A stretch of 64,000 nt of DNA from Acinetobacter sp. ANC 3832 (GTDB lineage: Bacteria; Pseudomonadota; Gammaproteobacteria; Pseudomonadales; Moraxellaceae): the NCBI RefSeq assembly GCF_002135415.1, contig NZ_NEGJ01000003.1:124001-188000 (forward strand), written 5' to 3'. Of the stretch, positions 43,244 to 60,022 are shown in pieces. Below the pieces are notes generated by a model. That model had not been told where the DNA came from. It worked only from the letters and a program-made list of their open reading frames with translations, and searched no databases. Position numbers and translations under genes: made by a program. Numbering within the stretch: position 1 is the stretch's first letter; each line of letters opens with the position of its first letter.

Positions 43244-44578
<1,335 letters not shown>

Positions 44579-44632
44579 TCATGCTGTTAAAATTGAAAAA
44601 CTTGCTTTGGTTAAAACAACCAAATTAAGCGA

Positions 44633-45799
44633 TTAAATCTGTTTGATTGTCCATTCACCTACAACATTCACCAATTGGTGTGTCGCATATGGCACTGAAT
44701 TTAAATCATCATTACCAAGCAATTGAATTACACTTAAACCTTGCTGACGCACATCAGCAATAGCTTTAAGTAAATTCGAATCTGTACCTTTGGGTGCAAC
44801 AACAATTTTAATATCTTTAAACTGACCTACGCTCAATGCATATAAGTCACAACTAAAACCTGTTGCTGGACGCGCACGACCAAAATGTTCACCAATACCA
44901 TCATAACGACCGCCTTGAGCTAAAGGCGCTGCACGATTAGGTGCATAAACGGCATACATTAAACCTGTATGATAATGATATGAGCGAAGTTCAACCACAT
45001 CAATACCGATATGAAGATTTGGCCAACGCGTTTGAATTTCAATTTGTGTCGTTTTTAAAGCATCAAACGCTTGTTTGAATGCTTCATCAGCTAAAAGCTC
45101 AGCACTTAAATGACTTTGCAATGCATTTAAGTCACTTGAATAACGACCCAATACATAAAAATCTGAACCAAATTTCAACGCTTTGGTAAATTCAGCAAGC
45201 TCAGGTAATGCTTTACGTTGATATAAGTCTGAAAGCTGACGTTCTGTCGCTTTGCTTAATCCAGCATGTTTTACTAAACTACGGAATAGTCCAACGTGTC
45301 CTAAGTCAAGATGGATTCCATCCACCAAACCGACTTTTTCAATGAGGTTGAGCATCAGATCAACCATTTCGACATCTGCATCGATACTGTTGGAACCAAA
45401 TAACTCCGCCCCCAACTGTAATGGCGCACGTGTGGTATTAAACCCTTGTGGTTTCGTATGTAAAACCGTTCCTGCATAGCAGTAACGCGCCACACCTTCT
45501 ACTGGATGTACATGTGCATCAATACGCGCCACTTGTGGTGTCATATCGGCACGCACACCAAGTAAACGACCTGAGAGTTGGTCGATGACTTTAAAAGTGG
45601 CTAAGTCTAAATCTTGATTCGATTCTGAAAGAGACGATAGAGATTCGATGTATTCAATAAATGGCGTGTACACCAATTGATAACCTCGTGAAGCGAGGAC
45701 ATCTAGTGCGTCACGACGCAAAGTTTCAATGACTTGCGCCTGTTCTGGCAATACATCAGCTACACCATCAGGTAATAACCATGTCTCTGAAATGGGCAT
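44633..45799 (-). CDS. hisZ: ATP phosphoribosyltransferase regulatory subunit
   Basis: A 388-residue HisRS-like paralogue that forms a complex with the short HisG and confers histidine feedback control. The start WLLPDGVADVLPEQAQVIE and the motifs FKVIDQLSGRLLGVRADMTP and YAPNRAAPLAQGGRYDGIGE show the class II synthetase fold. The C-terminal anticodon-binding domain is replaced by a short segment, which separates HisZ from real HisRS. Its presence implies a short-form hisG elsewhere in the genome. Confidence 0.94.
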   Translation of the reverse strand: MPISETWLLPDGVADVLPEQAQVIETLRRDALDVLASRGYQLVYTPFIEYIESLSSLSESNQDLDLATFKVIDQLSGRLLGVRADMTPQVARIDAHVHPVEGVARYCYAGTVLHTKPQGFNTTRAPLQLGAELFGSNSIDADVEMVDLMLNLIEKVGLVDGIHLDLGHVGLFRSLVKHAGLSKATERQLSDLYQRKALPELAEFTKALKFGSDFYVLGRYSSDLNALQSHLSAELLADEAFKQAFDALKTTQIEIQTRWPNLHIGIDVVELRSYHYHTGLMYAVYAPNRAAPLAQGGRYDGIGEHFGRARPATGFSCDLYALSVGQFKDIKIVVAPKGTDSNLLKAIADVRQQGLSVIQLLGNDDLNSVPYATHQLVNVVGEWTIKQI

Positions 45800-45841
45800 G
45801 TTGTAGACCTAAATTCTTGTCTGCGCGGAACTAATCCGCAT

Positions 45842-45867
45842 AAAAAAATCGGGAACACACCCGATTT
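45842..45867 (-). terminator. Intrinsic terminator of the Lrp-family gene
   Basis: AAATCGGG and CCCGATTT around a six-base loop, ending in T7 on the minus strand, about 100 bp past the regulator stop. Confidence 0.75.
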
Positions 45868-45966
45868 CTCTTATTTTAGCACGATAGTTAAAGCCATGCA
45901 TCAGGGAATTTAAGGAAATTTAAATCACCCAATATTTTATAATTCATCAACAATTTACGAATAACG

Positions 45967-46425
45967 TTATAGAGGCAATTCGGTCGTGTGTTTAATTTTC
46001 TGCAACGGGATCTCAGTTTTTACATTTTGAATGCCTGATATTTTATTTAAATGATGAATCTGAAATTTACGATAGGCTTCTAAATCAGACACCACGATTC
46101 TTAAAAAAAAATCACAGTCCCCTGCCATTAATTGGCATTCTACGACTTCCGGCATATCCATAATAGATTCAATAAATTGATTCACAGTTTTTTCATCTTG
46201 TTCTTTCAACCAAATTCGAGCAAAAACGGTGAGTTTTAAATCCACTTTATGAGAATCGACCAAAGCCACGTATTTTTCTATGATTCCCGCATCTTCCAAT
46301 TGTTTGACTCGGCGTAAACAGGGTGATGGAGATAAACCAATTTTTTCAGCCAATTCATTATTTTGCAGTTTTCCATTCTGCTGTAAGACTTGTAAAATAC
46401 GCTTATCCAGATGATCTAATTTCAC
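45967..46425 (-). CDS. Lrp/AsnC-family transcriptional regulator
   Basis: A 152-residue feast/famine regulator. The N-terminal helix-turn-helix is DKRILQVLQQNGKLQNNELA and KIGLSPSPCLRRVKQLEDAG. The C-terminal RAM domain (about 65-150) binds amino acids and forms the oligomer (VECQLMAGDCDFFLRIVVSD). It is divergent from azlCD, which export branched-chain amino acids in other bacteria. Control of azlCD in response to leucine or a related amino acid is a reasonable inference. The 225-bp gap would contain both promoters. Confidence 0.9.
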   Translation of the reverse strand: MKLDHLDKRILQVLQQNGKLQNNELAEKIGLSPSPCLRRVKQLEDAGIIEKYVALVDSHKVDLKLTVFARIWLKEQDEKTVNQFIESIMDMPEVVECQLMAGDCDFFLRIVVSDLEAYRKFQIHHLNKISGIQNVKTEIPLQKIKHTTELPL

Positions 46426-46650
46426 AACGACTGACCGAATTAAAATTTTATTGCTAAAAATATATAAAAATTAGAACAAAATTTCAATATCTATCATTAT
46501 CTAGCCAAATAAGGTGAAAAACACCTTATCTATAAGCATAAAATAATAAGTATAAAAAGTTGCTCTTTTTTATATTTCACAAAATATGCAGTGCAATATC
46601 TCGCTTGTTTTAAATAAATGCTTAGCTTGAAATACGCTTTAGGTAAAATC

Positions 46651-47394
46651 ATGTCCACGCTAAAAACATCAGTCAATGAGTTAAACCAGTCTGTAAGCTA
46701 CCAAGAGTTTTTCCGTGGTATCAAGGTTTCAATTCCAGTGATGCTTGGAATCATCCCTTTTGCATTGGTACTGGGGGCACAAGCAACTCAAAAAGGCTTT
46801 TCGGTTGTAGAAGTTCCACTGTTTACGGGGCTTAATTTTGCAGGTGGATCAGAGTTTGCTATTTTACAAGTCTGGACCAATCCACCAAATATTCTATTTC
46901 TGATTTTAATTACCTTTTTAGTGAATAGTCGTCATTTACTGATGGGTGCAAGTATTGCCCCTTTTATTCGCCATTTACCCAATCGCCAAACATTGCCTAT
47001 GTTGTTCTTTATGTGTGATGAAAGTTGGGCAATGAGCATGACCGATGCACATAAGCGTAATCCACAAAACCCGTATGCGGGCTTTAGTGTCTCTTTTTAT
47101 ATGGGTTTATGCTTTGCTTTATATTTAATTTGGGTTGTCTTTACAACACTCGGTGTTGGTATTGGTGGATTTTTAGGTGATGTCACTCAATTTGGTTTTG
47201 ATATGGCTTTCCCTGCCGTTTTCCTGGTGCTTTTACGTGGTATGTGGAAAGGCTTTAAAGCGGCTCAACCTTGGTTTATCAGTTTAATTTCAGCGGGTTT
47301 GGCTTATCATTTTCTCCCGCAAGGTTGGTATGTGCTTGTCGGTGCTTTATGTGGTATCGCATCTGCATTTTTTTTAGTTGGAGATGAAAAATGA
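46651..47394 (+). CDS. azlC: Branched-chain amino acid export permease, large subunit AzlC
   Basis: A 247-residue inner membrane protein of the AzlC family, the large half of a two-part exporter. Motifs include YQEFFRGIKVSIPVMLGIIP and the signature FAGGSEFAILQVW, followed by VNSRHLLMGASIAPFIR. About seven hydrophobic helices are visible. The frame opens at 46618, but the ATG at 46651 (MSTLKTSVNELNQ) has an AGG at normal distance. The stop overlaps the azlD start by four bases (ATGA), so the two subunits are coupled. Confidence 0.92.
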   Translation: MSTLKTSVNELNQSVSYQEFFRGIKVSIPVMLGIIPFALVLGAQATQKGFSVVEVPLFTGLNFAGGSEFAILQVWTNPPNILFLILITFLVNSRHLLMGASIAPFIRHLPNRQTLPMLFFMCDESWAMSMTDAHKRNPQNPYAGFSVSFYMGLCFALYLIWVVFTTLGVGIGGFLGDVTQFGFDMAFPAVFLVLLRGMWKGFKAAQPWFISLISAGLAYHFLPQGWYVLVGALCGIASAFFLVGDEK

Positions 47395-47687
47395 TTCATT
47401 CTGCAACCCTTATCGCAATTTTATGCATTGCTTTAACAACCTATCTGACCCGAATTCTAGGTTATTTATTATTAAAAAATAAAACGCTCAGTGTTCGTGC
47501 GCAACGAATTTTACAAGTCATTCCAGGTTGTGTCTTAATTTCAGTAATTGCACCCTATTTTGTCACAGACAATCCTGCGGATCTGCTTGCAATTATTGTT
47601 ACTTTTTTTGCTGCAATGTATCTTTCCTTATTACCCACCGTGATTATTAGCATTACTGTGACGGGTTTATTGCGCTACTTGATATAA
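47391..47687 (+). CDS. azlD: Branched-chain amino acid export permease, small subunit AzlD
   Basis: A 98-residue membrane protein with three to four helices. The LTTYLTRILGYLLLKNKTLS start and QVIPGCVLISVIAPYF are typical of AzlD, the small partner of AzlC. It begins inside the last codons of azlC. A strong terminator follows. The pair probably expels excess branched-chain amino acids under control of the divergent Lrp-like regulator. Confidence 0.92.
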   Translation: MIHSATLIAILCIALTTYLTRILGYLLLKNKTLSVRAQRILQVIPGCVLISVIAPYFVTDNPADLLAIIVTFFAAMYLSLLPTVIISITVTGLLRYLI

Positions 47688-47717
47688 GATTTTTTGTATA
47701 TTTACATCATCGCGAAT

Positions 47718-47757
47718 AAAAAAACAACGAAGATAAATAGATGATCTTCGTTTTTTT
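47718..47757. terminator. Terminator between azlD and a convergent small gene
   Basis: AACGAAGAT and ATCTTCGTT form the stem, with A7 and T7 on the flanks. It can work in both directions. Confidence 0.85.
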
Positions 47758-47772
47758 CAAAATAATTAGATG

Positions 47773-48072
47773 TTAATGTGAAGATTGTTGGTTTTGTAAA
47801 ATTCGAACCAATTCAGCATTTTGAAATTCAACTTGATTCAATCTTGCTGTGGTTTGATCTAAGACTTCTTGTTGGATATGCATTTTCTTTGCTAAATCTT
47901 GCATAATTTCTAAGGTCTTTTTCAAATGATCTTCTTGTGCCGCAATTTTCGTTTCTTGATCTTGAATCATCAGTAGCGAATCTTTATTTTCTTTACTCAA
48001 TTTGCCCAATTGCCAAACTAAAAAAATGATTGCAACATAGAGCAAGACAATACCCAACAATACAAATGTCAT
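47773..48072 (-). CDS. Small membrane-anchored coiled-coil protein
   Basis: A 99-residue protein of unknown function. One N-terminal membrane helix (VLLGIVLLYVAIIFLVWQLG) is followed by a long heptad-like helix (residues about 25-95) rich in Gln, Lys and Leu. This layout suits a membrane-tethered spacer or an oligomerising partner. It lies 60 bp downstream of the GAPDH-family gene on the same strand and may be cotranscribed with it. Confidence 0.65.
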   Translation of the reverse strand: MTFVLLGIVLLYVAIIFLVWQLGKLSKENKDSLLMIQDQETKIAAQEDHLKKTLEIMQDLAKKMHIQQEVLDQTTARLNQVEFQNAELVRILQNQQSSH

Positions 48073-48131
48073 ATAATTTCCCTTCTATACTTTATTTTAT
48101 AAATATTTAAAATTGATGATAAATCTATATG

Positions 48132-49157
48132 TTAAAAATAAAATGATTCTGATAAATCAAGTAAACGGTTGGCATAACCCCACTCATTATCATACCAAGC
48201 AAATACCTTTGCTTGACGACCTACGACCATTGTCTGAGTTAAATCTACAATTAAAGAATAAGGTGAGTGATTAAAATCACTTGAAACAAGCGCCTCATCA
48301 GTTACTGACATAATTTCAGCATAATCAAATTTTGCTGCGTGAATCAATTTTTCATTTAATAAATGTGCTGTAATCGGAGCTTGAGAAATAAACGTTAAAT
48401 CAATGGCAGCAACATTAATTGTGGGTACACGTATTGAATAACCATCAATGCGATCTTCCATTTTTGGCATGACTTGTTTTAAAGCACCCAATGCTGAAGA
48501 TGTCGTTGGGATAATATTATGACCCGACGCACGTGCGCGACGTAAATCTCGATGCGCATGATCTAGAACTGATTGATCTGCTGTTACAGCATGAATTTCG
48601 GTCATTAAAGCTGTATCAATACCAAACGCATCATCTATAACTTTGACTAAAGGAACAAGTGCTTGTGTCGTACATGACACACCTGAAATAATTTGATCTG
48701 TCGCTTTGACATCATGATGATTCACACCATAAACAATAGCAGCATCTACAGTATCAAATGGTGCAGCACCAATAATGACCCGCTTCGCCCCTGCTGTAAT
48801 ATGTTTGGTCGCAGCAACTCTAGAACGGAATAAACCTGTACATTCAAGTACAAGATCAATATCTAATGTTTTCCATGGTAATTGTTCTGGGTCTTCCACA
48901 CGTAGGATTTGTACTTTTAATTGGGATAATCCTGCTTCAATGTGCATATAGATCTGTTCATTTTCTTGAATGACATTGACCTTGCCTTGAAATCGACCAT
49001 GTGTGGTATCGTATTTAAATAAATGAACCAGTGTTTCAACATCTGCAATATCATTAATTGCAACGATTTCAAAATGAAAGTTCTTTGGATTTTCAAACCA
49101 AGCCCGTAATACATTACGCCCGATTCGTCCGAATCCATTTATCGCCACACGTTGCAT
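48132..49157 (-). CDS. Glyceraldehyde-3-phosphate / erythrose-4-phosphate dehydrogenase family enzyme
   Basis: A 341-residue NAD(P)-dependent phosphorylating aldehyde dehydrogenase. The start RVAINGFGRIGRNVLRAW is the Rossmann motif. The catalytic Cys lies in SGVSCTTQALVPLV and the His in TEIHAVTADQSVLD. The usual Asn after SCTT is Gln here, and RVPTINVAAIDLTF resembles erythrose-4-phosphate dehydrogenase (Epd) more than classical Gap. The substrate is therefore uncertain. I chose the ATG at 49157, with AAGGA six bases upstream, over an ATG nine codons earlier that lacks a ribosome site. Confidence 0.88.
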   Translation of the reverse strand: MQRVAINGFGRIGRNVLRAWFENPKNFHFEIVAINDIADVETLVHLFKYDTTHGRFQGKVNVIQENEQIYMHIEAGLSQLKVQILRVEDPEQLPWKTLDIDLVLECTGLFRSRVAATKHITAGAKRVIIGAAPFDTVDAAIVYGVNHHDVKATDQIISGVSCTTQALVPLVKVIDDAFGIDTALMTEIHAVTADQSVLDHAHRDLRRARASGHNIIPTTSSALGALKQVMPKMEDRIDGYSIRVPTINVAAIDLTFISQAPITAHLLNEKLIHAAKFDYAEIMSVTDEALVSSDFNHSPYSLIVDLTQTMVVGRQAKVFAWYDNEWGYANRLLDLSESFYF

Positions 49158-49649
49158 CAGCTGTCCTTCTTTTGAAACATTCATTGTTACATACAGATAT
49201 GTTATCGGATTTCTAAGCCTTATCGTTATAATTTGTCAGATGAGAATGCAAATATATTATCTTTGCTGACAATTTGATCGAAATTTAACTTAAATCAACC
49301 TGAATCCTATTTAAGCCAACATTCCGTTAATTTGAATCGTTGGTTTATTTGGGTAATAAACCTGATTAACACATAATGAAGCATAAATCCTTGCCAAATA
49401 GCCAGAAAGACTAAGAGGTTTCGTGAACTATTTTAATTAAATTTCTTTATCAGACATAGTGATTAGCATCTATATCCAGTCCATGATGATAAAAACCATC
49501 ATAAACCAGACATTTTTATTGGTAAGAATATAGACACTTTCAATGAGTTCTAACATGAGTCATTCGAATATCTAGTACTATGTCAAATACAAAAATAAAA
49601 AAGCCAGCATAATCGCTGGCTTTTTTATTTAAATTTACATCATCAAAAC
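49158..49649. other. Gene-free stretch between the OsmC-YcaO and GAPDH-family genes
   Basis: About 490 bases. The end near 49600 carries the terminator of the OsmC-YcaO gene. The part near 49200 should hold the dehydrogenase promoter. The middle is AT-rich and shows no reading frame or repeat that I recognise. Confidence 0.45.
49597..49626 (-). terminator. Intrinsic terminator of the OsmC-YcaO gene
   Basis: AAAAAAGCCAGC and GCTGGCTTTTTT around an ATAATC loop, 24 bp past the stop. Confidence 0.85.
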
Positions 49650-51854
49650 TTAACTCGATAAATTCGCAAACTTCTCACGCGCTTTATGCAGCTTCTTATA
49701 GCTATCAATCAAGCGTAAATGACGATCCAAACCTTCAAGTTTCATACTTGTTTCAGTTAAACCATGGAAACGAATACTGCCATCCATAGAACCAATCACG
49801 GCATCCATTCGCTCATCACCAAACATACGGCGGAAATTGACTTCATAATCATTCAAGTCCATCTCATCATCAAGCTCCACTTCCAGAACAACATTCAATG
49901 CCTGATAGAACAAACCACGTTCCACTGTATTGGTATTATATTGCAGGAATGTTTCCACAAGTTCCTTCGCTTCTTCAAATTCCTGTAATGCCAGATAAAT
50001 TAAAAGCTTTAATTCCAGAATGGTCAATTGACCCCAAACAGTATTATCATCAAATTCAATACCAATTAAAGTACTAATATCTGTGTAATCATCCACTTCA
50101 ACTTCTTCAAGGCGTTCAAGCAAAGCTTCTAGCTGTTCTTCATCTAAGCGATGTAAATTCAAGATATCTTCACGGAATAATAAGGCTTTGTTGGTATTAT
50201 CCCAAACCAAATCTTCCACAAGATAAATTTCTGAATAGCCTGGAACTAAGATACGACAAGCCGTTGCGCCTAAATGTTGATATACAGCCATATAAACTTC
50301 TTTGCCCATTTCTTTAAGAATACCGAACATCGTTGCAGCTTCATCAGCGTTGGCATTTTCACCTTGACTGGTAAAATCCCACTCTACAAACTCATGATCA
50401 GCCTGATCACTGAAAAAACGCCATGACACTACACCACTAGAATCAATAAAATGTTCAACAAAATTATTGGGTTCAGTCACTGCATTACTGCTAAATGTTG
50501 GTTTTGGTAAATCGTTTAGACCTTCAAAACTACGACCTTGTAACAATTCAGTCAAACTACGCTCTAACGCTACTTCTAATTTTGGATGTGCACCAAATGA
50601 AGCAAATACACCGCCTGTACGTGGGTTCATTAACGTCACACACATCACAGGATATTTTCCACCTAATGATGCATCTTTCACTAAGACTGGGAAACCTTGT
50701 TCTTCTAGACCTTTAATCCCTTCTACGATACTTGGATATTTCGCCAAAACCTCTTGTGGTACGTCTGGCAGTGTGATTTCACCTTCTAAAATTTCACGCT
50801 TTACTGCACGTTCAAAAATTTCAGATAAGCACTGTACCTGTGCTTCCGCCAAGGTATTACCCGCACTCATCCCATTAGATAAATATAAGTTTTCAATTAA
50901 ATTAGATGGAAAGTATACGGTTTCACCATCAGATTGACGTACAAAAGGTAATGAACAAATACCACGCTCCGTATTACCTGAATTGGTGTCATACAAATGC
51001 GTACCGAGTAACTCATCTTCTGGATTATAAATTTCTAAGCAATATTCGTCTAGAATTTCAGTGGGTAACGCACCTTCCGCACCAGGCTTAAACCATTTTT
51101 CATCTGGATAATGTACAAATTCAGCATGGGCAATATCTTGACCCCAAAACTGATCATTATAGAAAAAATTACAATTCAAACGCTCAATGAACTCACCTAA
51201 AGCTGATGCTAAAGCACTTTCTTTGGTTGAGCCTTTACCGTTGGTAAAACACATGGGAGATTGTGCATCACGAATATGTAAAGACCACACATTTGGTACA
51301 ATATTACGCCATGAAGCGATTTCAATCTTCATGCCTAAACCTGCCAAAATACCTGACATATTGGCAATGGTTTCTTCAAGCGGTAAATCTTTACCTTGTA
51401 TATATGTAGTATTTTCTGAAGCTAAACTTGGCATCAGCAAAGCTTGTGCATCTGCATCGATACTTTCAACAGCTTCAATGACAAATTCTGGACCTGTCTG
51501 TACTACTTTTTTTACAGTACAACGGTCGATCGAGCGTAAAATACCTTGACGATCTTTATCAGAAATATCAGATGGTAATTCAATCTGAATTTTAAAAATT
51601 TGTTTATAGCGGTTTTCAGGGTCGACAATATTGTTCTGTGAAAGACGAATGTTATCAGTCGGAATATCACGCGCGGCACAGTACACTTTGACAAAATAAG
51701 CTGCACAGAGTGCTGATGAAGCGAGAAAATAGTCAAATGGTCCCGGCGCTGAACCATCGCCTTTGTAGCGAATGGGTTGATCGGCGATTACCGTGAAGTC
51801 ATCGAATTTGGCTTCAACTCGAAGATTGTCGAGATAATTGACCTTGATTTCCAT
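49650..51854 (-). CDS. OsmC-domain / YcaO-domain fusion protein
   Basis: A 734-residue protein joining two folds. Residues 1-140 are OsmC-like (YKGDGSAPGPFDYFLASSAL and IDRCTVKKVVQTG) with Cys residues as in peroxide-reducing OsmC proteins. The YcaO ATP-dependent cyclodehydratase-type domain follows (about 180-560), with KGSTKESALASALGEFIERL and GMSAGNTLAEAQVQCLSEIF, which carry the ATP and Mg ligands (Glu-rich helices). The acidic C-terminal TPR-like tail (about 590-730) matches E. coli YcaO, linked there to methylthiolation of ribosomal protein S12. A similar role is possible. No substrate peptide gene is next to it. Confidence 0.9.
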   Translation of the reverse strand: MEIKVNYLDNLRVEAKFDDFTVIADQPIRYKGDGSAPGPFDYFLASSALCAAYFVKVYCAARDIPTDNIRLSQNNIVDPENRYKQIFKIQIELPSDISDKDRQGILRSIDRCTVKKVVQTGPEFVIEAVESIDADAQALLMPSLASENTTYIQGKDLPLEETIANMSGILAGLGMKIEIASWRNIVPNVWSLHIRDAQSPMCFTNGKGSTKESALASALGEFIERLNCNFFYNDQFWGQDIAHAEFVHYPDEKWFKPGAEGALPTEILDEYCLEIYNPEDELLGTHLYDTNSGNTERGICSLPFVRQSDGETVYFPSNLIENLYLSNGMSAGNTLAEAQVQCLSEIFERAVKREILEGEITLPDVPQEVLAKYPSIVEGIKGLEEQGFPVLVKDASLGGKYPVMCVTLMNPRTGGVFASFGAHPKLEVALERSLTELLQGRSFEGLNDLPKPTFSSNAVTEPNNFVEHFIDSSGVVSWRFFSDQADHEFVEWDFTSQGENANADEAATMFGILKEMGKEVYMAVYQHLGATACRILVPGYSEIYLVEDLVWDNTNKALLFREDILNLHRLDEEQLEALLERLEEVEVDDYTDISTLIGIEFDDNTVWGQLTILELKLLIYLALQEFEEAKELVETFLQYNTNTVERGLFYQALNVVLEVELDDEMDLNDYEVNFRRMFGDERMDAVIGSMDGSIRFHGLTETSMKLEGLDRHLRLIDSYKKLHKAREKFANLSS

Positions 51855-52081
51855 GCGGGCACCTAAATGTTCTTATGTGTCTGCAGGCACACATAAAATT
51901 TAAAATATTAAAACATAAGCCGAATAGCGGATAAGAAATTGACTTAAAAAAGCGACGCGAGCTATAACTATTGATCCAATGTTTGTAATCAATAATTGAC
52001 TCTCGTCATGTAATGATGGGCACTATTATAGAGTTATTTGCTTGAGTTGATAACTTTTATCTGTCTTTACATGAATTTCAT

Positions 52082-52109
52082 ACTTATGGCTGTTTATATG
52101 GCAGTGAAC
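52082..52109 (-). CRISPR. Single degenerate type I-F CRISPR repeat
   Basis: On the minus strand this reads GTTCACTGCCATATAAACAG followed by CCATAAGT. Type I-F repeats are 28 bp of the form GTTCACTGCC, a short loop, GGCAG, then an A-rich end. The first ten bases match perfectly and the palindrome's right arm is damaged. No second repeat is found at the expected 60-bp step, so this is a lone relic. Confidence 0.7.
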
Positions 52110-52438
52110 GTATGTACTCCGTTGAGCGATATTTACTTTGTGGGGTTATCCATTCAATTTCACTACCCATAAACAGTGGCGCCCCACCTCCACCACAAAA
52201 ACCAACCAATACGCCTGCACTGGCGAGCATCCGCATGGGCGGCTTGAGTAATCGATGTCCCTGTGCCGAGCATGATCACCGTAGTATCGGCAATGGGAAT
52301 ATTCCAATATTGGTTTTCATTTTTGGCTTCGGTCAAATATAAAATTCGACCATCTTTTTACATGACTCGACAATATTCGAGGTAATACACATTGGCATGT
52401 TTAGAATGTAAAATTGCTTTTAAGTCTGACGGATTGAG
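52110..52438 (-). pseudogene. cas1: Decayed 5' fragment of type I-F cas1
   Basis: On the minus strand, 52438 downward reads LNPSDLKAILHSKHANVYYL, then EYCRVM, a stop (TAA at 52358-52360 where Gln is expected), then KDGRILYLTEAKNENQYWNI and MLGTGTSITQAA. One extra base in the G-run at 52237-52239 shifts the frame. After it the protein continues as MRMLASAGVLVGFCGGGGAP and EWITPQSKYRSTEY. This is the N-terminal third of Cas1 of type I-F systems. The start codon is missing (a TAA precedes CTC) and the rest of the gene is gone, replaced by the repeat at 52082-52109. The nearby plus-strand frame at 52112-52342 is only a shadow. Confidence 0.85.
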
Positions 52439-52670
52439 TTATTTAATTTTATTCAAATCTTTGTATTATATCATTTTAATTTGAGTATATATGTATTTTT
52501 GAAAAATAGAATAAGTCTTTCTCCTTCAAACGACACATATTGTCGTATTTTCAATCACAGTTTAATTTTAGTTTTTATATGATACTTATATTACTGATTA
52601 TTAAATATATAATTACAATCACATGTGGCTTCAAGCATAAAGCTTTTTAATGTCTTCTTTAATAAAACTT

Positions 52671-52881
52671 AGATCTCCTCGCAAAGGTCAAAAAATAAAC
52701 AAAATTATATAAGTGAAATCATATTTGATTAATATTGAATTTTCCTTCTCCTTTTGGGAGATGGTTAGGATAAGGGTGAACCTTAAGGATAATCCTCTCC
52801 CTAGTCCTTTCCTTAAAAAAGGAAAGGAGGAACCTATTGCGAAATAAATGTTGATTAAACGCTGACTTATGCAAAAGCTTT
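52671..52881 (-). repeat. MITE-like element, copy C (inverted)
   Basis: A 211-bp copy in the opposite orientation to copies A and B. On the minus strand it begins AAAGCTTTTGCATAAGTCAG and ends with GCGAGGAGATCT. The inner parts shared with copy A include TTTAATCAACATTT and AATTTTGTTTATTT-like segments, and a strong palindrome of TCCTTTCC type lies at about 52807-52829. It lies between the cas1 relic and pqiC. Confidence 0.78.
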
Positions 52882-52934
52882 TGAAGAGAAGTATTTAGAA
52901 CACAACGTCTCTTAAAATACTAGGTGTTAAATCA

Positions 52935-53663
52935 TTAAGAACAGACCACATTTTGTGCAATGACTGTTTTTTTAGCTTCTACTACAATGACTGATGCACT
53001 AACAGCCTCAATCACCCGACTAAGTGACTGACGAGACGCACCCACTACATTTTGTATTTTATTACCATCCTTCGTTACAGGTGTACTAAAGGCCATTCTG
53101 CAACTTAATGGCGAATTGGATGTCTTTGTTTGAGTTAATGGTCGATTCGGATCATCGACTTTAATCGTCCAAGCGACTGTAACATCAACATCACGATTCA
53201 CATCCCCCTTTAAAGATTGGGGACTGGCATGTTCAACAATATCAAAACGAGAAAAATCAGCAGAAATTCGATAAGAGATTTGCCCACCCGTCATTCCACT
53301 ATTATAACGATCTACCGCCCCTAATTTTTGCTGTAAACCCGCAGATAAACCATCTCTCAGCTCAGCACCTAGTGTTGATGTCCAACGCTCATTATCCAGC
53401 ACATTTGACTTACCACTCATTTCTTGTAGTACCAATGGTGCACGATCTAAACGATCAGGCAAACCAACGGGCATCACTTCAATCACCCGTATATTTGTAC
53501 CATTAACTAAAGGAGCAATTTTTGGTGCCAATGTATAATAATTCGGTGTAGTCGAACTTGAGCATGCTGTTAAACCTAACAAAAGCACCGACAACCCACT
53601 CCACCCAAGTCTACGGAATGAAAAAATCTGTGAGAAATTCAAATTACTTTTTTTATTGACCAT
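52935..53663 (-). CDS. pqiC: PqiC-like lipoprotein of an MCE lipid transport system
   Basis: A 242-residue lipoprotein (lipobox LTAC) of the ABC-type transport auxiliary (PqiC/DUF330) family. It shows SSSTTPNYYTLAPKIAPLVN, IRVIEVMPVGLPDRLDRAPL and RWTSTLGAELRDGLSAGLQQ. PqiC sits in the outer membrane and receives the PqiB tube. I chose the ATG at 53663, with GAGGA five bases before it. It overlaps the pqiB end by 11 bases. The frame extends upstream to 53687 without a ribosome site. Confidence 0.9.
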   Translation of the reverse strand: MVNKKSNLNFSQIFSFRRLGWSGLSVLLLGLTACSSSTTPNYYTLAPKIAPLVNGTNIRVIEVMPVGLPDRLDRAPLVLQEMSGKSNVLDNERWTSTLGAELRDGLSAGLQQKLGAVDRYNSGMTGGQISYRISADFSRFDIVEHASPQSLKGDVNRDVDVTVAWTIKVDDPNRPLTQTKTSNSPLSCRMAFSTPVTKDGNKIQNVVGASRQSLSRVIEAVSASVIVVEAKKTVIAQNVVCS

Positions 53664-55326
53664 TTTCTTCCTCAACTGATTTCCCACGGATTAATGATTC
53701 TGGATGTTGTTCAATATAATCTGACATGAGCTGTAAGGATGCTGCAGCACGTGTCATTTGTTGTAATGCACGGCGTACATCTTGTTGCAAAGGCGCATCA
53801 CTGGATAGAATAGACTCAGTTGAACGCATTGTTTTACGTACATCTTCAAGCGTTGCTTGCATACCCGGTGCAACCTTAGTATCTAACTGCTTCACTAATT
53901 TATCTGTAGTTTCAATTGTCGTATTCATATTATTTAAAGTTTTACGAACGTCTTGCCCAATCTCTACCAATGGAAATTTGGTTAATTTATCCGCGATTTG
54001 TGAAACCTGAGCTTGCAATCCACTCAACTCGGTTTGTGTCGTTGGCACTTCTGTTTTTCCATCACCACGCATTTTTAACACAGCAGGTTTTGCTTTAGGA
54101 AACTTATCAAAGGCAATATAATTTTGCCCTGTTAATAGATTCCCTGTTCTGACTTGTGCACGCCATCCATTTTGAATGAAACGTTTAAAAATAGAACCAT
54201 CAGGGTCTAATTCTTTTCCTTGGGCTAAACGAGATGGATAAATTACAGCATCAACACGCATACGTAGTTGCGTGTAATTTGCATCAAATTCGACATTAAT
54301 CGATTTAACATCCCCAATTTCAATCCCCATGAAATCAATCGGTGCACCTGCTGCCAATCCCCGCAATGATTGATCAAAATACATCACAATTGGATGTGCT
54401 TTTCCATCAGGCACTTTGAGTGCATCTGTTTTTGAGCTCCAAAGATTAAAATGACTTTGATTCGTGGCTACAGCAGCATTTGAATTTTCGGGATAACCGA
54501 ATGCTATTCCCCCTGCAATAATACTGGCGAGAGACTGGGTATTTAAGCTAAATCCAGAAGCATTTAAACTGACATCAACACCACTCGCTTGCCAAAAGCG
54601 TGCATCTGTTGTCACAAATTTATCGTATGGCGATTGGATAAAGGTTTGCAATTCCACAGTTTTACCATCATTCGCCAGTTTATAAGCGGTGATTTGCCCC
54701 ACATTAATTCGACGGTAATAAATGGGAGAGCCCACATCCAAAGAACCCAAATCTCCTGCTGTTAAAAAGAATACTTTTCCCGGTACATCTGAGGCAATCA
54801 CAGGAGGAACTTCTAAACCTTTAAATTCATCTTGTTTTTCTTGTGCTTTTCCACCATCCACTTCGATATAAGAACCTGACAATAATGTATCAATACCCGA
54901 TACACCCCCTGTACCTATACGTGGTCGCACCACCCAAAAACGAGAATCTTTTGTAGCAAAATTACTGGCATCTTTGCGCAGTTCAATTTTAACCATGACA
55001 TGAGAATGATCTTCCGAAAATCCAATTTTCCGTACTAAGCCAATATCCACTTGTTTAAATTTAACTGTAGTTTTTCCTGCAACCAAACCATCTGCCGTTT
55101 TAAAAGAAACATTAATGGTTGGCCCAGTATCCATAAAAGTTTTCACTGCCAGTGACAAAGCAATTAAAAAAGCAATCAGTGGAATCAGCCAAATGAATGA
55201 GGGTCTCCATTTGCCTTTCTTTTTTTCAGGTTCTGGCAAAACGTGCTGATTTACTGTGGTCGAGTTTGTCTCATCATGATCTGAATCTGAATGCTCATTA
55301 TTTGTTTTATTTTCAGACATACGCAT
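53653..55326 (-). CDS. pqiB: PqiB-like MCE-domain protein
   Basis: A 557-residue inner-membrane-anchored periplasmic protein. One N-terminal helix (PSFIWLIPLIAFLIALSLAV) is followed by three MCE/MlaD domains: TINVSFKTADGLVAGKTTVK, KVFFLTAGDLGSLDVGSPIY and IVMYFDQSLRGLAAGAPIDF. A long C-terminal helical region (about 430-545) forms the needle. In E. coli PqiB forms a syringe-like tunnel for lipids between the membranes. The gene lies between pqiA-type genes and pqiC. The start could also be the ATG two codons later (55320). Confidence 0.93.
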   Translation of the reverse strand: MRMSENKTNNEHSDSDHDETNSTTVNQHVLPEPEKKKGKWRPSFIWLIPLIAFLIALSLAVKTFMDTGPTINVSFKTADGLVAGKTTVKFKQVDIGLVRKIGFSEDHSHVMVKIELRKDASNFATKDSRFWVVRPRIGTGGVSGIDTLLSGSYIEVDGGKAQEKQDEFKGLEVPPVIASDVPGKVFFLTAGDLGSLDVGSPIYYRRINVGQITAYKLANDGKTVELQTFIQSPYDKFVTTDARFWQASGVDVSLNASGFSLNTQSLASIIAGGIAFGYPENSNAAVATNQSHFNLWSSKTDALKVPDGKAHPIVMYFDQSLRGLAAGAPIDFMGIEIGDVKSINVEFDANYTQLRMRVDAVIYPSRLAQGKELDPDGSIFKRFIQNGWRAQVRTGNLLTGQNYIAFDKFPKAKPAVLKMRGDGKTEVPTTQTELSGLQAQVSQIADKLTKFPLVEIGQDVRKTLNNMNTTIETTDKLVKQLDTKVAPGMQATLEDVRKTMRSTESILSSDAPLQQDVRRALQQMTRAAASLQLMSDYIEQHPESLIRGKSVEEENGQ

Positions 55327-55332
55327 TATTCT

Positions 55333-56106
55333 TTATTGGCTAGAATTGGAAAAATCATTATTCAAAGGAGTATGCCCTGTTTGAATAATACGGGTACTTG
55401 TATTAGAAGATGAATTTTTATCATCTTTGGCTTGAGCTGAATAATAGTTATCCCAAATAATCCGTGGATCAAAACTCAATGAAGCTAACATCGTCAAAAC
55501 CACAACTGCACCAAAAGCAACTGAACCCGGTCCTGCTAAAATCGTCGCTAAAGATTGAATTTGAATCAGTGCAGTAAGTAAAGCAACCACAAATACATCA
55601 ATCATTGACCATCTTCCGATAAATTCAACCACACGATAAAGCATTGCACAATGTTCTGGTAAAAAATTCCAACGCTTTGATGATTGCATTTTTACTGCCA
55701 TCACTAAAAAACATAAAATAAATAGTTTCAACATGGGAATAAAAATACTCGCCATGAAAATGACACTCGAAACAAAATAATCACCACTTTGCCAAAAGTA
55801 AATCACACCACTCATAATCGTATCTTGCTGATGACCTAAAAGAGAGTCTGTGATTGTCATGGGCAGAACATTGGCAGGAATATATAAAATACTTGCTGCA
55901 ATCATCAGTGCTACTGTTCGGTCTAAACTTTTAGGCTTACGTTGATGTAATATCGTACGGCATCTTGAACAATACGATTTTTTTTGATCACTTTCAGTTA
56001 AGACCGATTCTTGATTTAATAAGCCACAACAATGACAAAGCACCAATGATAAATCAGTCGCTCTTGGATATTTTGAAAATACCGTTGTTACATCATGATT
56101 TTTCAT
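55333..56106 (-). CDS. pqiA: PqiA-type membrane protein, second half
   Basis: About 257 residues. A zinc-ribbon-like Cys pair at the N-terminus (LCHCCGLLN and YCSRCRTIL) precedes four membrane helices (PqiA domain), with LDRTVALMIAASILYIPANV and MLYRVVEFIGRWSMIDVFVV. E. coli PqiA has two such domains in one chain. Here each is a separate gene. I chose the ATG at 56106, with AGG seven bases upstream, which overlaps the end of the first half by 14 bases. The charged C-tail (SSNTSTRIIQTG) is variable. Confidence 0.88.
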   Translation of the reverse strand: MKNHDVTTVFSKYPRATDLSLVLCHCCGLLNQESVLTESDQKKSYCSRCRTILHQRKPKSLDRTVALMIAASILYIPANVLPMTITDSLLGHQQDTIMSGVIYFWQSGDYFVSSVIFMASIFIPMLKLFILCFLVMAVKMQSSKRWNFLPEHCAMLYRVVEFIGRWSMIDVFVVALLTALIQIQSLATILAGPGSVAFGAVVVLTMLASLSFDPRIIWDNYYSAQAKDDKNSSSNTSTRIIQTGHTPLNNDFSNSSQ

Positions 56107-56773
56107 GACTATACCTATCAATTTCGTCCCAAATATCCTTAACTTTGACTGATGCGATATAAACCAGTAACAAGCTCAATACAGCGAATGACCACAATGC
56201 AATCCCCGGAATCACAACCACCATTCCTGCGAGCTTCACCAATGTTACTAAAACTCCAATTAAAAAAACCTCAATCATTCCCCATGTTCTAAACAAGAAA
56301 ATAATACGAAGGGCAATAACAAGATATTTAGGTTTTGTTTTAAATAAACTGATGGATGAAAGTACATAAATCAGTAAAAGTAAATCCATGAGTGGCACAA
56401 CGAATGTGGTTATTAATATCAATACGCCAACAAAAGCTCGGTCAGCATGAAACATTGCCCATGCTGCACCTAATAATGTGGTTTGTGAGTCATGACCTTG
56501 TAATTCAACTTTCACAATTGGAAAGCTATTCGAAATCGCAAAAACGATCAGTGCCGTAATAGCTAAAGCCAAAAGTACTGTGAACGGTTTACTTTGCCGA
56601 TAAAGTTCTGCACCACAACATACACAATATGCACGCTCACCTGAAGCAAGCGGAACTTTACGATATACCGTATCGCATTCTTCACAACCTGCTAATTCCT
56701 CAGGTGACAAATCAGACAATTGAGACTGATTGATAACAGGTGGAATGGGATGAACTAAAGGGAATTGGCTCAT
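56093..56773 (-). CDS. pqiA: PqiA-type membrane protein, first half
   Basis: About 226 residues with the same plan as its downstream neighbour: Cys pairs CEECDTVYRK and YCVCCGAELYR, then four helices including PFTVLLALAITALIVFAISN and LRIIFLFRTWGMIEVFLIGV. It is the first gene of the pqiA-pqiA-pqiB-pqiC set. The ATG at 56773 (MSQFPLVHP) is the only ATG in frame; a TTG at 56812 would add 13 residues. It anchors lipid transport in the inner membrane. The substrate is not known. Confidence 0.87.
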   Translation of the reverse strand: MSQFPLVHPIPPVINQSQLSDLSPEELAGCEECDTVYRKVPLASGERAYCVCCGAELYRQSKPFTVLLALAITALIVFAISNSFPIVKVELQGHDSQTTLLGAAWAMFHADRAFVGVLILITTFVVPLMDLLLLIYVLSSISLFKTKPKYLVIALRIIFLFRTWGMIEVFLIGVLVTLVKLAGMVVVIPGIALWSFAVLSLLLVYIASVKVKDIWDEIDRYSHEKS

Positions 56774-57056
56774 AGAGCATGCATACCATTGCTGTGTTTT
56801 TAGGATCGTCAATATTTTGCTATATTTTATTGATCATCATACAGATGATTTATGATGTTTTTTGAGGATATCTTGTTCGTGTTTTTTTAACAACTCACTT
56901 CTTTGATTTCACTAAATCAGTCAAATCAATAGAAATGAACCCTTAAAATGATTCACTTCTATTTAAATCAGATGAGGAAATACCTTACTAAAATGTACTG
57001 ACGAATTCCTTATCTTGTTTGTATAAACAAAAATTTAAAACTTATATACCACAGGC

Positions 57057-57467
57057 TTATTCAACCCATAACTGAGCAATTTTTTTCATCAATTGTGCAC
57101 GATATGGCGCTGTAGGATTACACGGATTACGAACTACTTCATTTTCATAAAAAGCCTGCCATTCTTTTACCATATCCAAAGTTGTGCCTTTAATTTGAAT
57201 CGCTTTCAAATCTGATTTTTTAATACTTTCCAGCCGAGTTTTAGCACCTTCTTGCCCTGTCGCCCAACCAATCACACCTTGTCCAAAATTAGGTAAGCTC
57301 ATATTATTTGGTGTTTTGGGAATAGGATTACGCTCAATATTTGTATTTACTTTACATAGATGATGTTTCACTAATTCGGGTGCTTTTACTTTGTCATGTT
57401 GTATTGTCGAACAAGCACTTATGCTCAACAATGAACAGATGAGCAATGAGGCTTTTAAGTGTTTCAT
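57057..57467 (-). CDS. Small lipoprotein downstream of the TonB receptor
   Basis: A 136-residue lipoprotein with lipobox ISAC (Cys19). The mature part has two more Cys (HHLCKVNTN and VVRNPCNPTAPY), so a disulfide is likely. No domain is recognised. It begins 20 bp after the TonB-dependent receptor gene on the same strand and so is almost certainly cotranscribed. A surface or periplasmic partner of that receptor is a fair guess. Confidence 0.7.
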   Translation of the reverse strand: MKHLKASLLICSLLSISACSTIQHDKVKAPELVKHHLCKVNTNIERNPIPKTPNNMSLPNFGQGVIGWATGQEGAKTRLESIKKSDLKAIQIKGTTLDMVKEWQAFYENEVVRNPCNPTAPYRAQLMKKIAQLWVE

Positions 57468-57486
57468 GATTTAATTTCCACGCTAA

Positions 57487-59994
57487 TTAAAACTTAAATG
57501 TGATGTCTGCAATAAATTGACGACCTGATTCTGAATACAGATAATTACTATTACTTTGAGTATATTTATTATCTTGATTGGTTAAATTATTGATGGTTAA
57601 ACCAAGTATTAATTTGTTTTCTTTTGCTAAAGCAATATCATAAGTCGTGCGCATATCCCATGTGAAACTACCGTCAATTCGTGTGGCGTTATAAGCTGTT
57701 TTTATCGCATCACCATTGGGTGCAATCGGACGATTTGCAAAAGGAATTGTTGATGAAACCATCGCATCATAATTCGAGCGATAACAAAATAAATGACTGA
57801 TTTTTAAAGGTAAATAGTTATGTTGAATATCCCAACTTAATCGTGCAGACCATGGACGAGCGAAATTTTCTGCTGGGCGTAGCGATTCATCAATAATATC
57901 GCCCTGATATAAAATATATTGCTGATAAGTGAGTGAGTTATAACTGTTGTTATCATAATCAGTAAAATTACGTGTGATATCGCTATAGTCCAAACCCAAT
58001 TGGAAACGATTTTGTGTAGATAAGAATTCGATTGGGTGATGATTTGCAATGCTGAATGTATAAATATTTGCCTCACTCATACCATAATTATCATATTCAT
58101 CTGTAATTGGTGTAAATGAAATGCGTTTTTTACGGATTTGATCTTTATTATCACGATTCACATATTTTAACTGTGCATCAAACAACCCAATTCGACCATT
58201 CACAGCAAATACCGTTTCATTGGTATATGGTGTATCAAGCTCGCTACGTTGCACATTATTGGTGCTTGCAGATACAAACGTCCAATCATCTTTCACACTA
58301 CTGCGCTTCTCACGAGAATTTAATTGATTGACCCCATCCAGTAATTTGTAAGTAAAAAGATTATTGGCATAATAACGATTCCACCCTGCTGTAAATGCAA
58401 GACGGCTATCTTTAAAGGGTTGATAAATAAATGAACTTCGCGGTGCCAAATTCGTCTGACCATTCAAGCTATCATAATCTGCACGTAAACCAATATTCGC
58501 TTTCAGAAGGTTGTTCCAGTTCATGCGGTCTTCTAGAAAAAGATGCGCACGATCCTGACTAACATCAATTTTACCTGCACCAAATACATCACGTTGAATA
58601 TGAAACTGACCTTTGCCATCGTTATAGCTTAAATCACAATAGGGATCGACATCACCCTGAGCATTTAAACATGAGCTCGTTCCAGCAAGACCAACACCCG
58701 AAGGTAAAAAGTAGGAATAAACTGAATCTGGACGTTGCCAATCTGCTGTGTAATTACCATAGCCAGCCCCGACAGTGACTTTATGCTCTAAATTCTCGAA
58801 ATGAAACGGTGTAAATTCTGATTTTATTTTATATTCTAAAACATCCAGTTGCTGAGATCGTGTTCCATACCCACCTTCTACAGCAGTATTTGTACTTGAC
58901 CAATCTTTATCAGGCGAGCTTTTCCATGACACCAAGGCATCACTATCTGACTCATTTAGCATTTTTTGTTGTTGATAGACTAAAGACTGGGTAATTTTTG
59001 CTTTCTGAAACTGTGAAACCAGTTCGACATCCAATGCTGCATTCTTACTATTAACTTGCTTCCCACTATTTAAATTATTGGCTTGTTCTAAATCTTTTTG
59101 ATCATTCTGAAATTGTAAGCCGACTCTTAATTTATGCTGATCACTTAAATCTGCATAAACATTTAAATTTACATTATCATTTTCACGTTTTTGATTGGCA
59201 TTTTCGACAGTAAGTAAGTCTGACTTTAAATCAATATCAGACCAACGTTTAGCGAGCCCTAAACTTATACCTACTCGATCCGTTACACGACCATACAAAG
59301 ATGCTGATAGACCTTGTTTAACAAAATCTTTTTGATATTGTTTATTGTCATCGTCATATTCTTCTAATTCACCTTCTGTAACATGACTAAAGTTGGTCCA
59401 GTCACTTGAAGTATAGTCATAGCTCATCTGTCCATGTATTTTACCAACCTGAGTTTTAGGTGCGCATGTTTTTGCTTTAACAACACCACCTGTAAACTCA
59501 CCATATTCAGCACTGACATTACTGTCGAGCACCTCCAACTCGCAAATCAAATGCGTATTTACAGTCGTAGTTGCAGAAGAACCACTTAAATCTGTCGTGT
59601 TATAATCCTGATTGCCACTCGCTGGGTTTATTAAGTTATTTAAACTGACATTATTGAGTAATAATTTATTTTCATAAGCCAATGCACCGTTAATGCTAAT
59701 TTCAGCACCTGAGATTTCCCCTTGTTTACCACCTTCCATCACAGTATTTGAAAACTGCACATTCGGATTAATCTTTAGAAAATCAGTCATGGTTTTTTGA
59801 GCGTTTGGCGTGTTTTCTAATTGTTCTTTACTATATGTCGTTGTGCCTACCTCATCGGTTTTATCAGCTTGCACAACAATCGGTATTAAAGATACAGAGC
59901 GATGTGCTTGCACCTCATTTTGAATAGATTCCGCATGTACAGTAGATAAAACCAAATAAATTGAACATGCCAATGTTGTACGCGAATATTGCAT
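57487..59994 (-). CDS. TonB-dependent outer membrane receptor
   Basis: About 835 residues. A signal peptide (LACSIYLVLSTVHA) is followed by a TonB-box-like region (VSLIPIVVQADKTDEVG). The plug domain covers about 50-170 (YSKEQLENTPNAQKTMTDFL) and the rest is a beta-barrel ending in Phe. Loop Cys pairs (SSCLNAQGDVDPYCDL) suggest disulfides. No haem- or siderophore-specific motif is clear, so the ligand is unknown. The ATG at 59994 follows a TTG at 59997. A GAATCT/AGATTC inverted repeat lies six bases upstream. A small lipoprotein gene follows in the same operon. Confidence 0.88.
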   Translation of the reverse strand: MQYSRTTLACSIYLVLSTVHAESIQNEVQAHRSVSLIPIVVQADKTDEVGTTTYSKEQLENTPNAQKTMTDFLKINPNVQFSNTVMEGGKQGEISGAEISINGALAYENKLLLNNVSLNNLINPASGNQDYNTTDLSGSSATTTVNTHLICELEVLDSNVSAEYGEFTGGVVKAKTCAPKTQVGKIHGQMSYDYTSSDWTNFSHVTEGELEEYDDDNKQYQKDFVKQGLSASLYGRVTDRVGISLGLAKRWSDIDLKSDLLTVENANQKRENDNVNLNVYADLSDQHKLRVGLQFQNDQKDLEQANNLNSGKQVNSKNAALDVELVSQFQKAKITQSLVYQQQKMLNESDSDALVSWKSSPDKDWSSTNTAVEGGYGTRSQQLDVLEYKIKSEFTPFHFENLEHKVTVGAGYGNYTADWQRPDSVYSYFLPSGVGLAGTSSCLNAQGDVDPYCDLSYNDGKGQFHIQRDVFGAGKIDVSQDRAHLFLEDRMNWNNLLKANIGLRADYDSLNGQTNLAPRSSFIYQPFKDSRLAFTAGWNRYYANNLFTYKLLDGVNQLNSREKRSSVKDDWTFVSASTNNVQRSELDTPYTNETVFAVNGRIGLFDAQLKYVNRDNKDQIRKKRISFTPITDEYDNYGMSEANIYTFSIANHHPIEFLSTQNRFQLGLDYSDITRNFTDYDNNSYNSLTYQQYILYQGDIIDESLRPAENFARPWSARLSWDIQHNYLPLKISHLFCYRSNYDAMVSSTIPFANRPIAPNGDAIKTAYNATRIDGSFTWDMRTTYDIALAKENKLILGLTINNLTNQDNKYTQSNSNYLYSESGRQFIADITFKF

Positions 59995-59999
59995 CAACC

Positions 60000-60022
60000 G
60001 AATCTTAATATAAATGAGATTC
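60000..60022. promoter_or_regulatory. Inverted repeat just upstream of the TonB receptor start
   Basis: GAATCT (60000-60005) and AGATTC (60017-60022) are perfect arms 11 bp apart, within 30 bp of the start codon. They could be an operator or a small mRNA hairpin over the ribosome site. It does not match a Fur box well. Confidence 0.4.

What the first reader, a model, noticed from the sequence alone, without database searches (positions are those of the whole stretch)
52082..52438. Scar of a lost type I-F CRISPR-Cas system: cas1 fragment fused to a CRISPR repeat
The minus strand encodes the first third of a type I-F Cas1, with a missing start, a Gln-to-stop change and a one-base insertion. After TEY the cas1 sequence ends and a degenerate I-F repeat begins (GTTCACTGCC). 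The simplest reading is one deletion from inside cas1 to the array, removing cas2-3, the csy genes and all spacers, followed by decay. The region is otherwise easy to miss because its longest frame is a plus-strand shadow.
Basis: partly seen in the sequence, partly recalled or inferred. Interest (0 to 1): 0.75.

Follow-up and report, generated by a model that had tools for sequence, protein, structure and literature searches.

The report
Decayed cas1 stub fused to CRISPR repeat
An Acinetobacter genome keeps a rotted scrap of a lost CRISPR immune system, the front third of its cas1 gene joined directly to a worn CRISPR repeat, and similar scraps turn up in several other Acinetobacter species.

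Summary
On the minus strand, 52447-52110 is the first third of a type I-F cas1 (two pieces; NCBIfam Cas1f E 1.7e-28 and 7.4e-16). It has no start codon, two in-frame stops and a frameshift. It abuts an I-F repeat at 52109-52082 with 2 mismatches in the first 21 bases (randomised windows reached 6-7). About 4-13 bases further on, DNA ancestral to the OsmC-YcaO gene resumes. The genome has no cas2-3 or csy4 match but keeps a one-spacer I-F mini-array elsewhere. No cas locus was found at this site in relatives, so the intact ancestor was not seen and its effector variant is unknown. The scar is one of a series: 9 distinct cas1-to-repeat junctions in 10 of 175 Acinetobacter genomes; no junction from cas2-3 to an array was seen, but three loci lost cas1 instead. 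A 17-bp palindrome lies upstream of cas1 in 44 of 52 loci and 12 of 14 scars, this one included. It is a new member of a known kind: a degenerate CRISPR-Cas remnant.

The parts
52530..52546 (.). 17-bp palindrome ACGACA-N5-TGTCGT, 82 bp upstream of the old cas1 start; candidate operator of the cas operon
   Evidence: 44 of 52 cas1-first loci carry it at >=11 of 12 arm positions within 60-160 bp upstream of cas1, against 2 of 5000 random 100-bp stretches; 0 strict hits in 736 kb of 39 control loci; 3 exact copies in the own genome
52110..52447 (-). cas1f pseudogene, first ~112 codons: start codon lost, two in-frame stops, one frameshift
52109..52110 (-). junction: cas1 homology ends, repeat begins
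52082..52109 (-). degenerate type I-F CRISPR repeat (19 of the first 21 bases match, 3' end worn), probably the terminal repeat (inferred)
51855..52071 (-). ancestral upstream region of the OsmC-YcaO gene, resuming about 4-13 bp after the repeat; right edge of the lost locus

Best explanation
It is the decayed scar of a cas1-first type I-F CRISPR-Cas locus that once stood between pqiC and the OsmC-YcaO gene, reading in their direction. Shown: the 5' third of cas1 with its upstream palindrome, a break at about codon 112, one worn repeat directly at the break, then the ancestral upstream DNA of the next gene. Inferred: a deletion, probably by short-homology or illegitimate recombination, joined cas1 to the distal end of the array and removed the rest of cas1, cas2-3, the effector genes and all but the last repeat; the stub then decayed by point mutation. 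It encodes no working Cas1 and is not expected to have a function.
For: Cas1f profile and sequence match. Repeat match far beyond chance at the exact end of cas1 homology. The right flank is homologous to the OsmC-YcaO upstream DNA of other Acinetobacter: in 13 of 40 loci the alignment starts at 52071-52068, in two more at 52078-52076, all just outside the repeat. No cas2-3 match and no csy4 match in the genome. Same-type junctions in nine other genomes, several with clean repeats and spacers.
Against: No intact locus at this site was found, so the deletion cannot be seen as before and after. Only one genome of the species is held. A single deletion and repeated shrinkage give the same end state. 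The repeat's last 7 bases hardly match; that is expected of a terminal repeat but is not proof of one.
Confidence: 0.9

Rival explanations
1. The locus was lost stepwise: the effector genes went first and internal deletions then grew outwards until only the outermost pieces, the cas1 5' end and the last repeat, were left.
For: Two genomes share one site but break at cas1 codons 194 and 68 (G108, G111), as nested shrinkage could give. The window stub is heavily mutated, so it is old enough for several steps. One A. baumannii isolate with an internal deletion that kept cas1 and csy4 is in print (PMC4338279, passages).
Against: G149 has nearly the whole of cas1 joined to 34 repeats, which looks like one recent step. 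Half-way stages (whole cas1 with part of cas2-3 and no csy4) were not seen in the lists.
Confidence: 0.3
2. The stub is kept and works as RNA: the cas1 promoter with its palindrome drives a short transcript carrying a repeat, acting as a decoy or a CreR/CreA-like guide for incoming I-F systems.
For: The palindrome is intact here and in 12 of 14 scars. CreTA modules made of degenerate repeats are known in Acinetobacter I-F loci (PMC10097628, passages).
Against: Only one worn repeat, so the creA layout is not met. With about 18% divergence, 12 unchanged arm bases happen by chance about one time in eleven (own arithmetic). No cas2-3 or csy4 is left to use an RNA.
Confidence: 0.04
3. The cas1 piece and the repeat met by integrase action of Cas1-Cas2/3 (off-target joining of cas1 DNA to a repeat edge) and not by an ordinary deletion.
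For: In the window and in G022 cas1 runs to the first or second base of the repeat.
Against: The other seven junctions fall inside a partial spacer (G108, G111, G124/G125) or inside the repeat (G018, G059, G105, G149), and in those last four cas1 resembles the repeat at the break (my reading).
Confidence: 0.03

Closest known systems
Type I-F cas1 (Cas1f, TIGR03637 / cas1_YPEST)
   Same: Sequence and position behind a conserved upstream palindrome; 75 of 175 Acinetobacter genomes have a match over the family cut-off, a few of them partial genes
   Different: Only codons 1-112 remain, without a start codon and with stops and a frameshift
Deleted I-F loci of A. baumannii: isolate Naval-82 (internal deletion) and TYTH-1 (locus replaced by 128 bp) (PMC4338279, passages)
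   Same: Loss of an I-F locus by deletion in the same genus
   Different: Naval-82 lost cas3/cas2 to part of csy3 only; here the break is inside cas1 and reaches a repeat
CreTA / CreR modules of CRISPR-Cas loci (PMC10097628 and PMC12737573, passages)
   Same: Repeat-like sequence outside a regular array, near cas DNA
   Different: No pair of repeats and no guide at the window site

Membership tests
Cas1f protein family | Profile similarity to TIGR03637 | tested here: met
   E 1.7e-28 and 7.4e-16 for the two pieces; 2.7e-27 and 6.2e-15 on DNA
Cas1f protein family | Whole protein over the curated cut-off (150 bits), open reading frame | tested here: not met
   97 and 56 bits; start lost, two stops, frameshift; it is a pseudogene fragment
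[quoted passage not shown]
   No TIGR02562 and no TIGR02563 match in the own genome; csy1-3 were not searched genome-wide
[quoted passage not shown]
   Repeat at 52109-52082, 2 mismatches in 21
[quoted passage not shown]
   None among the 63 other cas1-positive genomes with a listed YcaO place; 14 cas1-positive genomes had no YcaO match and 4 no listed or only a weak one; nearest are G085, G101, G153, 13-15 kb away and pointing the other way (by eye)
CRISPR array | Two or more repeats with spacers at the site | tested here: not met
   One repeat only
creA-type module | Guide between two repeat-like sequences | tested here: not met
   Single repeat; no second 21-mer within 6 mismatches in the window
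Anti-cas orphan array (described for E. coli; recalled, paper not seen) | Spacer matching I-F cas genes | tested here: not met
   The spacer of the own mini-array has no match longer than 12 bases in the cas loci held

The most novel reading that the evidence does not exclude
In Acinetobacter, loss of cas1-first I-F loci tends to follow a rule: surviving deletions start inside cas1 and end in the array, because CRISPR-guarding toxin modules (CreTA-like, in the cas1-cas3 or cas3-csy1 gap) kill cells that lose the effector but keep the toxin. The scars, this one included, would then be footprints of CRISPR addiction read directly from genomes.
Probability: 0.1. Interest if true: 0.75.

Novelty: new member of a known kind. 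Interest (0 to 1): 0.42.

Why it matters
By itself it is a fossil: evidence that this lineage once carried a chromosomal I-F system and lost it. Its value lies in the series it belongs to. Nine distinct cas1-to-repeat junctions across a genus make CRISPR loss a countable event with sequenced end points, so ideas about how and why immunity is lost (short homology, autoimmunity, toxin-guarded operons) can be tested. The conserved palindrome in front of cas1 is a concrete candidate for the binding site of an unknown cas regulator.

Tried and rejected
Tried and set aside: (a) An intact locus at the same site. 156 of 175 genus genomes match the YcaO query, but the list of places was capped. Of the 82 cas1-positive genomes, 64 have a listed YcaO place; by eye only the window has cas1 within 10 kb upstream of it. 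Where the two lie on different contigs this rests on the contigs (G154 has only 477 bases upstream of its YcaO gene). (b) pqiC as a site marker: 62 of 175 genomes; apart from the window, near a cas1 only in G038, 6 kb away. (c) Rfam on 44000-60000: nothing near the scar at E<=1. (d) A target for the mini-array spacer: none in held cas loci, two weak phage matches with E 0.9; plasmids and viral contigs were not searched with it. (e) Deciding the effector variant from cas1 identity: best matches of 82-84% include loci of both kinds. (f) Other genera of the family: of the partial cas1 matches listed I fetched two; G250 is cut by an insertion and G219 by a contig end. The rest were not read. (g) Addiction as cause of the break pattern: repeat-like sites lie in the cas1-cas3 gap of 8 of 53 loci (a pair in 7, one in L205) and on the minus strand of the cas3-next gap of 12 of 50. 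A toxin in the second place would not forbid breaks inside cas2-3, and three loci show the opposite loss, so the idea explains only part.

Rows left out of the 9 junctions: G136 (stub at codon 50 joined to non-repeat DNA, repeat 2.2 kb away), G072 and G029 second copy (shared stub; at most the last bases are repeat), G080 second copy (weak repeat likeness), G129 (contig end), G145 second copy and G088 (decayed or frameshifted, other cas genes remain). Opposite losses: G017, G112 and the second locus of G049 lack cas1 (G017 and G049 also the start of cas2-3) but keep csy4 and an array. G067 keeps cas2-3 without cas1, csy4 or repeats in 20 kb; it belongs to a lineage with another gene order. G081 has weak cas3-profile pieces only, not confirmed with Acinetobacter proteins. 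A stricter palindrome count gave 28 of 43 upstream stretches.

Full report
What is there. The window is Acinetobacter DNA (closest relatives). On the minus strand, downstream of pqiC (52935-53687) and upstream of the OsmC-YcaO gene (49650-51854), the profile of type I-F Cas1 matches in two frames: 52414-52235 (E 2.7e-27) and 52260-52108 (E 6.2e-15), with no other match in the genome. Searched as protein pieces, both have Cas1f as best NCBIfam family (1.7e-28, 7.4e-16). The first piece is 93% identical over 59 residues to an intact Acinetobacter Cas1. Read against intact genes the stub begins at 52447. Its start codon is gone, codons 3 and 30 are stops, and the frame shifts once near 52237 (my reading).

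The junction. cas1 homology ends at about codon 112. The next bases, 52109-52082, read GTTCACTGCCATATAAACAGCCATAAGT. Against the Acinetobacter I-F repeat this has 2 mismatches in the first 21 bases and 8 in 28; no other 21-mer in the window comes within 6, and 20 random sequences with the window's dinucleotide frequencies had minima of 6-7. The worn 3' end suits a terminal repeat. [quoted passage not shown] Of 40 loci compared, the alignment starts at 52071-52068 in 13 and at 52078-52076 in two; in others it starts later or is missing (nine sequences aligned). The lost locus therefore ended within roughly 4-13 bases of the repeat. In the eight loci I read, the gene further upstream is of six different kinds.

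The rest of the genome. There is no cas2-3 match and no csy4 match. Two I-F repeats with one spacer stand at G000:C23:46750-46837, 130 kb away on the same contig. The spacer matches the held cas loci over at most 12 bases and phage records only weakly (two, E 0.9).

Is the site known intact? No. In 175 genus genomes, one per species, 82 have a Cas1f match and 156 a match to the YcaO query. I compared the listed places by eye. In the 64 cas1-positive genomes with a listed YcaO place, only the window has cas1 within 10 kb upstream; G085, G101 and G153 have it 13-15 kb away in the opposite direction. Fourteen cas1-positive genomes had no YcaO match and four no usable place, and contig ends leave gaps. 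pqiC occurs in 62 of 175. I-F loci sit at many places in this genus, and five listed Acinetobacter plasmids carry an annotated cas1f, so the absence of this site elsewhere is not surprising.

The scar is one of a series. Among the partial cas1 matches and the full cas1 genes without cas2-3 I found the same architecture, cas1 5' part then repeat, in ten genomes including this one (break codons): G000 (112), G022 (115), G111 (68), G018 (50), G124 and G125 (38 and 37, same site), G108 (194), G059 (296), G105 (297) and G149 (299). That is 9 distinct junctions. G108 and G111 share a site but not a break; G124 and G125 share both; G022 shares its left flank with the stub of G136, which is joined to other DNA. 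None of the ten genomes has a cas2-3 or csy4 match, though G022 keeps ten further repeats 7.5 kb downstream and G018 a 27-repeat array elsewhere. In G059, G105 and G149 the break is at one place near the end of cas1, where cas1 resembles the first half of the repeat; in G018 the shared bases are ATAT (my reading).

How strong is the pattern? Every cas1-to-repeat junction breaks in cas1 by definition; the point is what was not seen. No full-length cas1 was found followed by a truncated cas2-3 without csy4, apart from a contig break (G101). The operon is about 8.2 kb and cas1 0.97 kb, so if breaks that keep the cas1 5' end were spread evenly, nine of nine in cas1 would have a chance of about 4e-9 (own arithmetic; a crude null, as junctions may be nested, csy1-3 were not searched across the genus, and seven genomes with full cas1 and cas2-3 but no csy4 match were set aside because csy4 is divergent in their lineage). 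An A. baumannii isolate with a break behind cas1 is also in print (PMC4338279, passages). Stubs without a clear repeat are named in Tried and rejected.

A conserved palindrome. RCGWCA-N5-TGWCGY lies 60-160 bp upstream of cas1 in 44 of 52 cas1-first loci (11 or 12 of 12 arm positions; the loci are related, and a few carry a broken cas gene), against 2 of 5000 random 100-bp stretches, and in 12 of 14 scars. In the window it is 52530-52546. The strict form is absent from 736 kb of 39 control loci. The exact form has three copies in the own genome, one of them this; of 12 genomes searched, 8 have 1-5 copies, not all near cas genes, and 4 have none; in G250, of another genus, a copy precedes each of the two cas1 places. 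A second copy lies inside cas2-3 near its 3' end in 17 of 53 loci, and in the lineage with another gene order a copy precedes cas2-3 in three of four loci read (L167, L218, L220). It has the look of an operator. The published regulators of A. baumannii I-Fb, H-NS and BaeR, are reported with other sites (PMC12625773, passages). Its survival in the window is not proof of use: with about 18% divergence of the cas1 piece, 12 unchanged arm bases are expected about 9% of the time (own arithmetic).

Why breaks in cas1? CreTA modules guard I-F loci in some Acinetobacter from the cas3-csy1 gap (PMC10097628, passages). I see repeat-like sites in that gap on the minus strand in 12 of 50 loci and in the cas1-cas3 gap in 8 of 53 (a pair in 7), with a short hydrophobic frame of 36-39 codons in the three I translated. 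If loss of the effector frees such a toxin, only deletions that also take the toxin survive. That fits breaks in cas1 where the toxin sits right behind cas1, but not loci where it sits behind cas2-3. I rate it possible, not shown. Outward shrinkage and short homology remain the simpler causes.

Literature. I found no description of recurrent cas1-to-array fusions (searches: listings; plus passages of PMC4338279, PMC7392541 and PMC7056967) nor of this palindrome (listings; plus passages of PMC12625773). The library lacks most subscription papers. Loss of the locus by deletion in this genus is known (PMC4338279).

Verdict. The feature is an ordinary kind of fossil in an interesting series.

Noticed in passing
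window 52530-52546; L127, L129, L174 and others: 17-bp palindrome RCGWCA-N5-TGWCGY upstream of cas1 in 44 of 52 loci, with a second copy inside the 3' part of cas2-3 in 17 of 53; candidate operator of an unknown regulator.
   Followed up: partly
L174, L181, L189, L194, L199, L205, L210, L132 (cas1-cas3 gap): creA-like repeat sites (pairs in 7 loci, one site in L205) in a 340-500 bp gap between cas1 and cas3, with a hydrophobic frame of 36-39 codons before them in the three translated (L087, L095, L098, of which L087 and L095 cover the L174 and L189 loci and L098 the L132 locus); the CreTA paper passages describe the cas3-csy1 gap.
   Followed up: partly
L163 (G000:C23:46750-46837, outside the window): Orphan mini-array of two I-F repeats and one spacer in the same genome.
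   Followed up: partly
L165 (G149), L123 (G059), L166 (G105): Three cas1 genes joined to a repeat at the same place near their 3' end, where cas1 resembles the repeat; in G149 the open frame is 371 codons and 34 repeats follow.
   Followed up: partly
L130, L179, L183, L206 and others: I-F loci whose ~983-codon Cas2-3 matches the I-F profile only in its first ~98 positions and which, in L130, lack matches to csy1-3 but keep cas6f; perhaps the compact I-F2 variant (name recalled).
   Followed up: no
window 52744-52827: Stretch between pqiC and the stub that resembles DNA in L103 in both directions: a dispersed inverted repeat.
   Followed up: no
L221 (G250 second copy): A cas1 5' stub in another genus cut short by what looks like an insertion sequence (type judged by eye), with the palindrome still upstream.
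   Followed up: no
L167 (G067), L218, L220: I-F lineage in which cas2-3 stands apart from csy4-cas1; the palindrome precedes cas2-3 by 60-90 bp, and G067 keeps cas2-3 alone.
   Followed up: no
upstream of the OsmC-YcaO gene, L003-L027: Conserved promoter-like block with six kinds of upstream neighbour in the eight loci read: a possible insertion hot spot.
   Followed up: no
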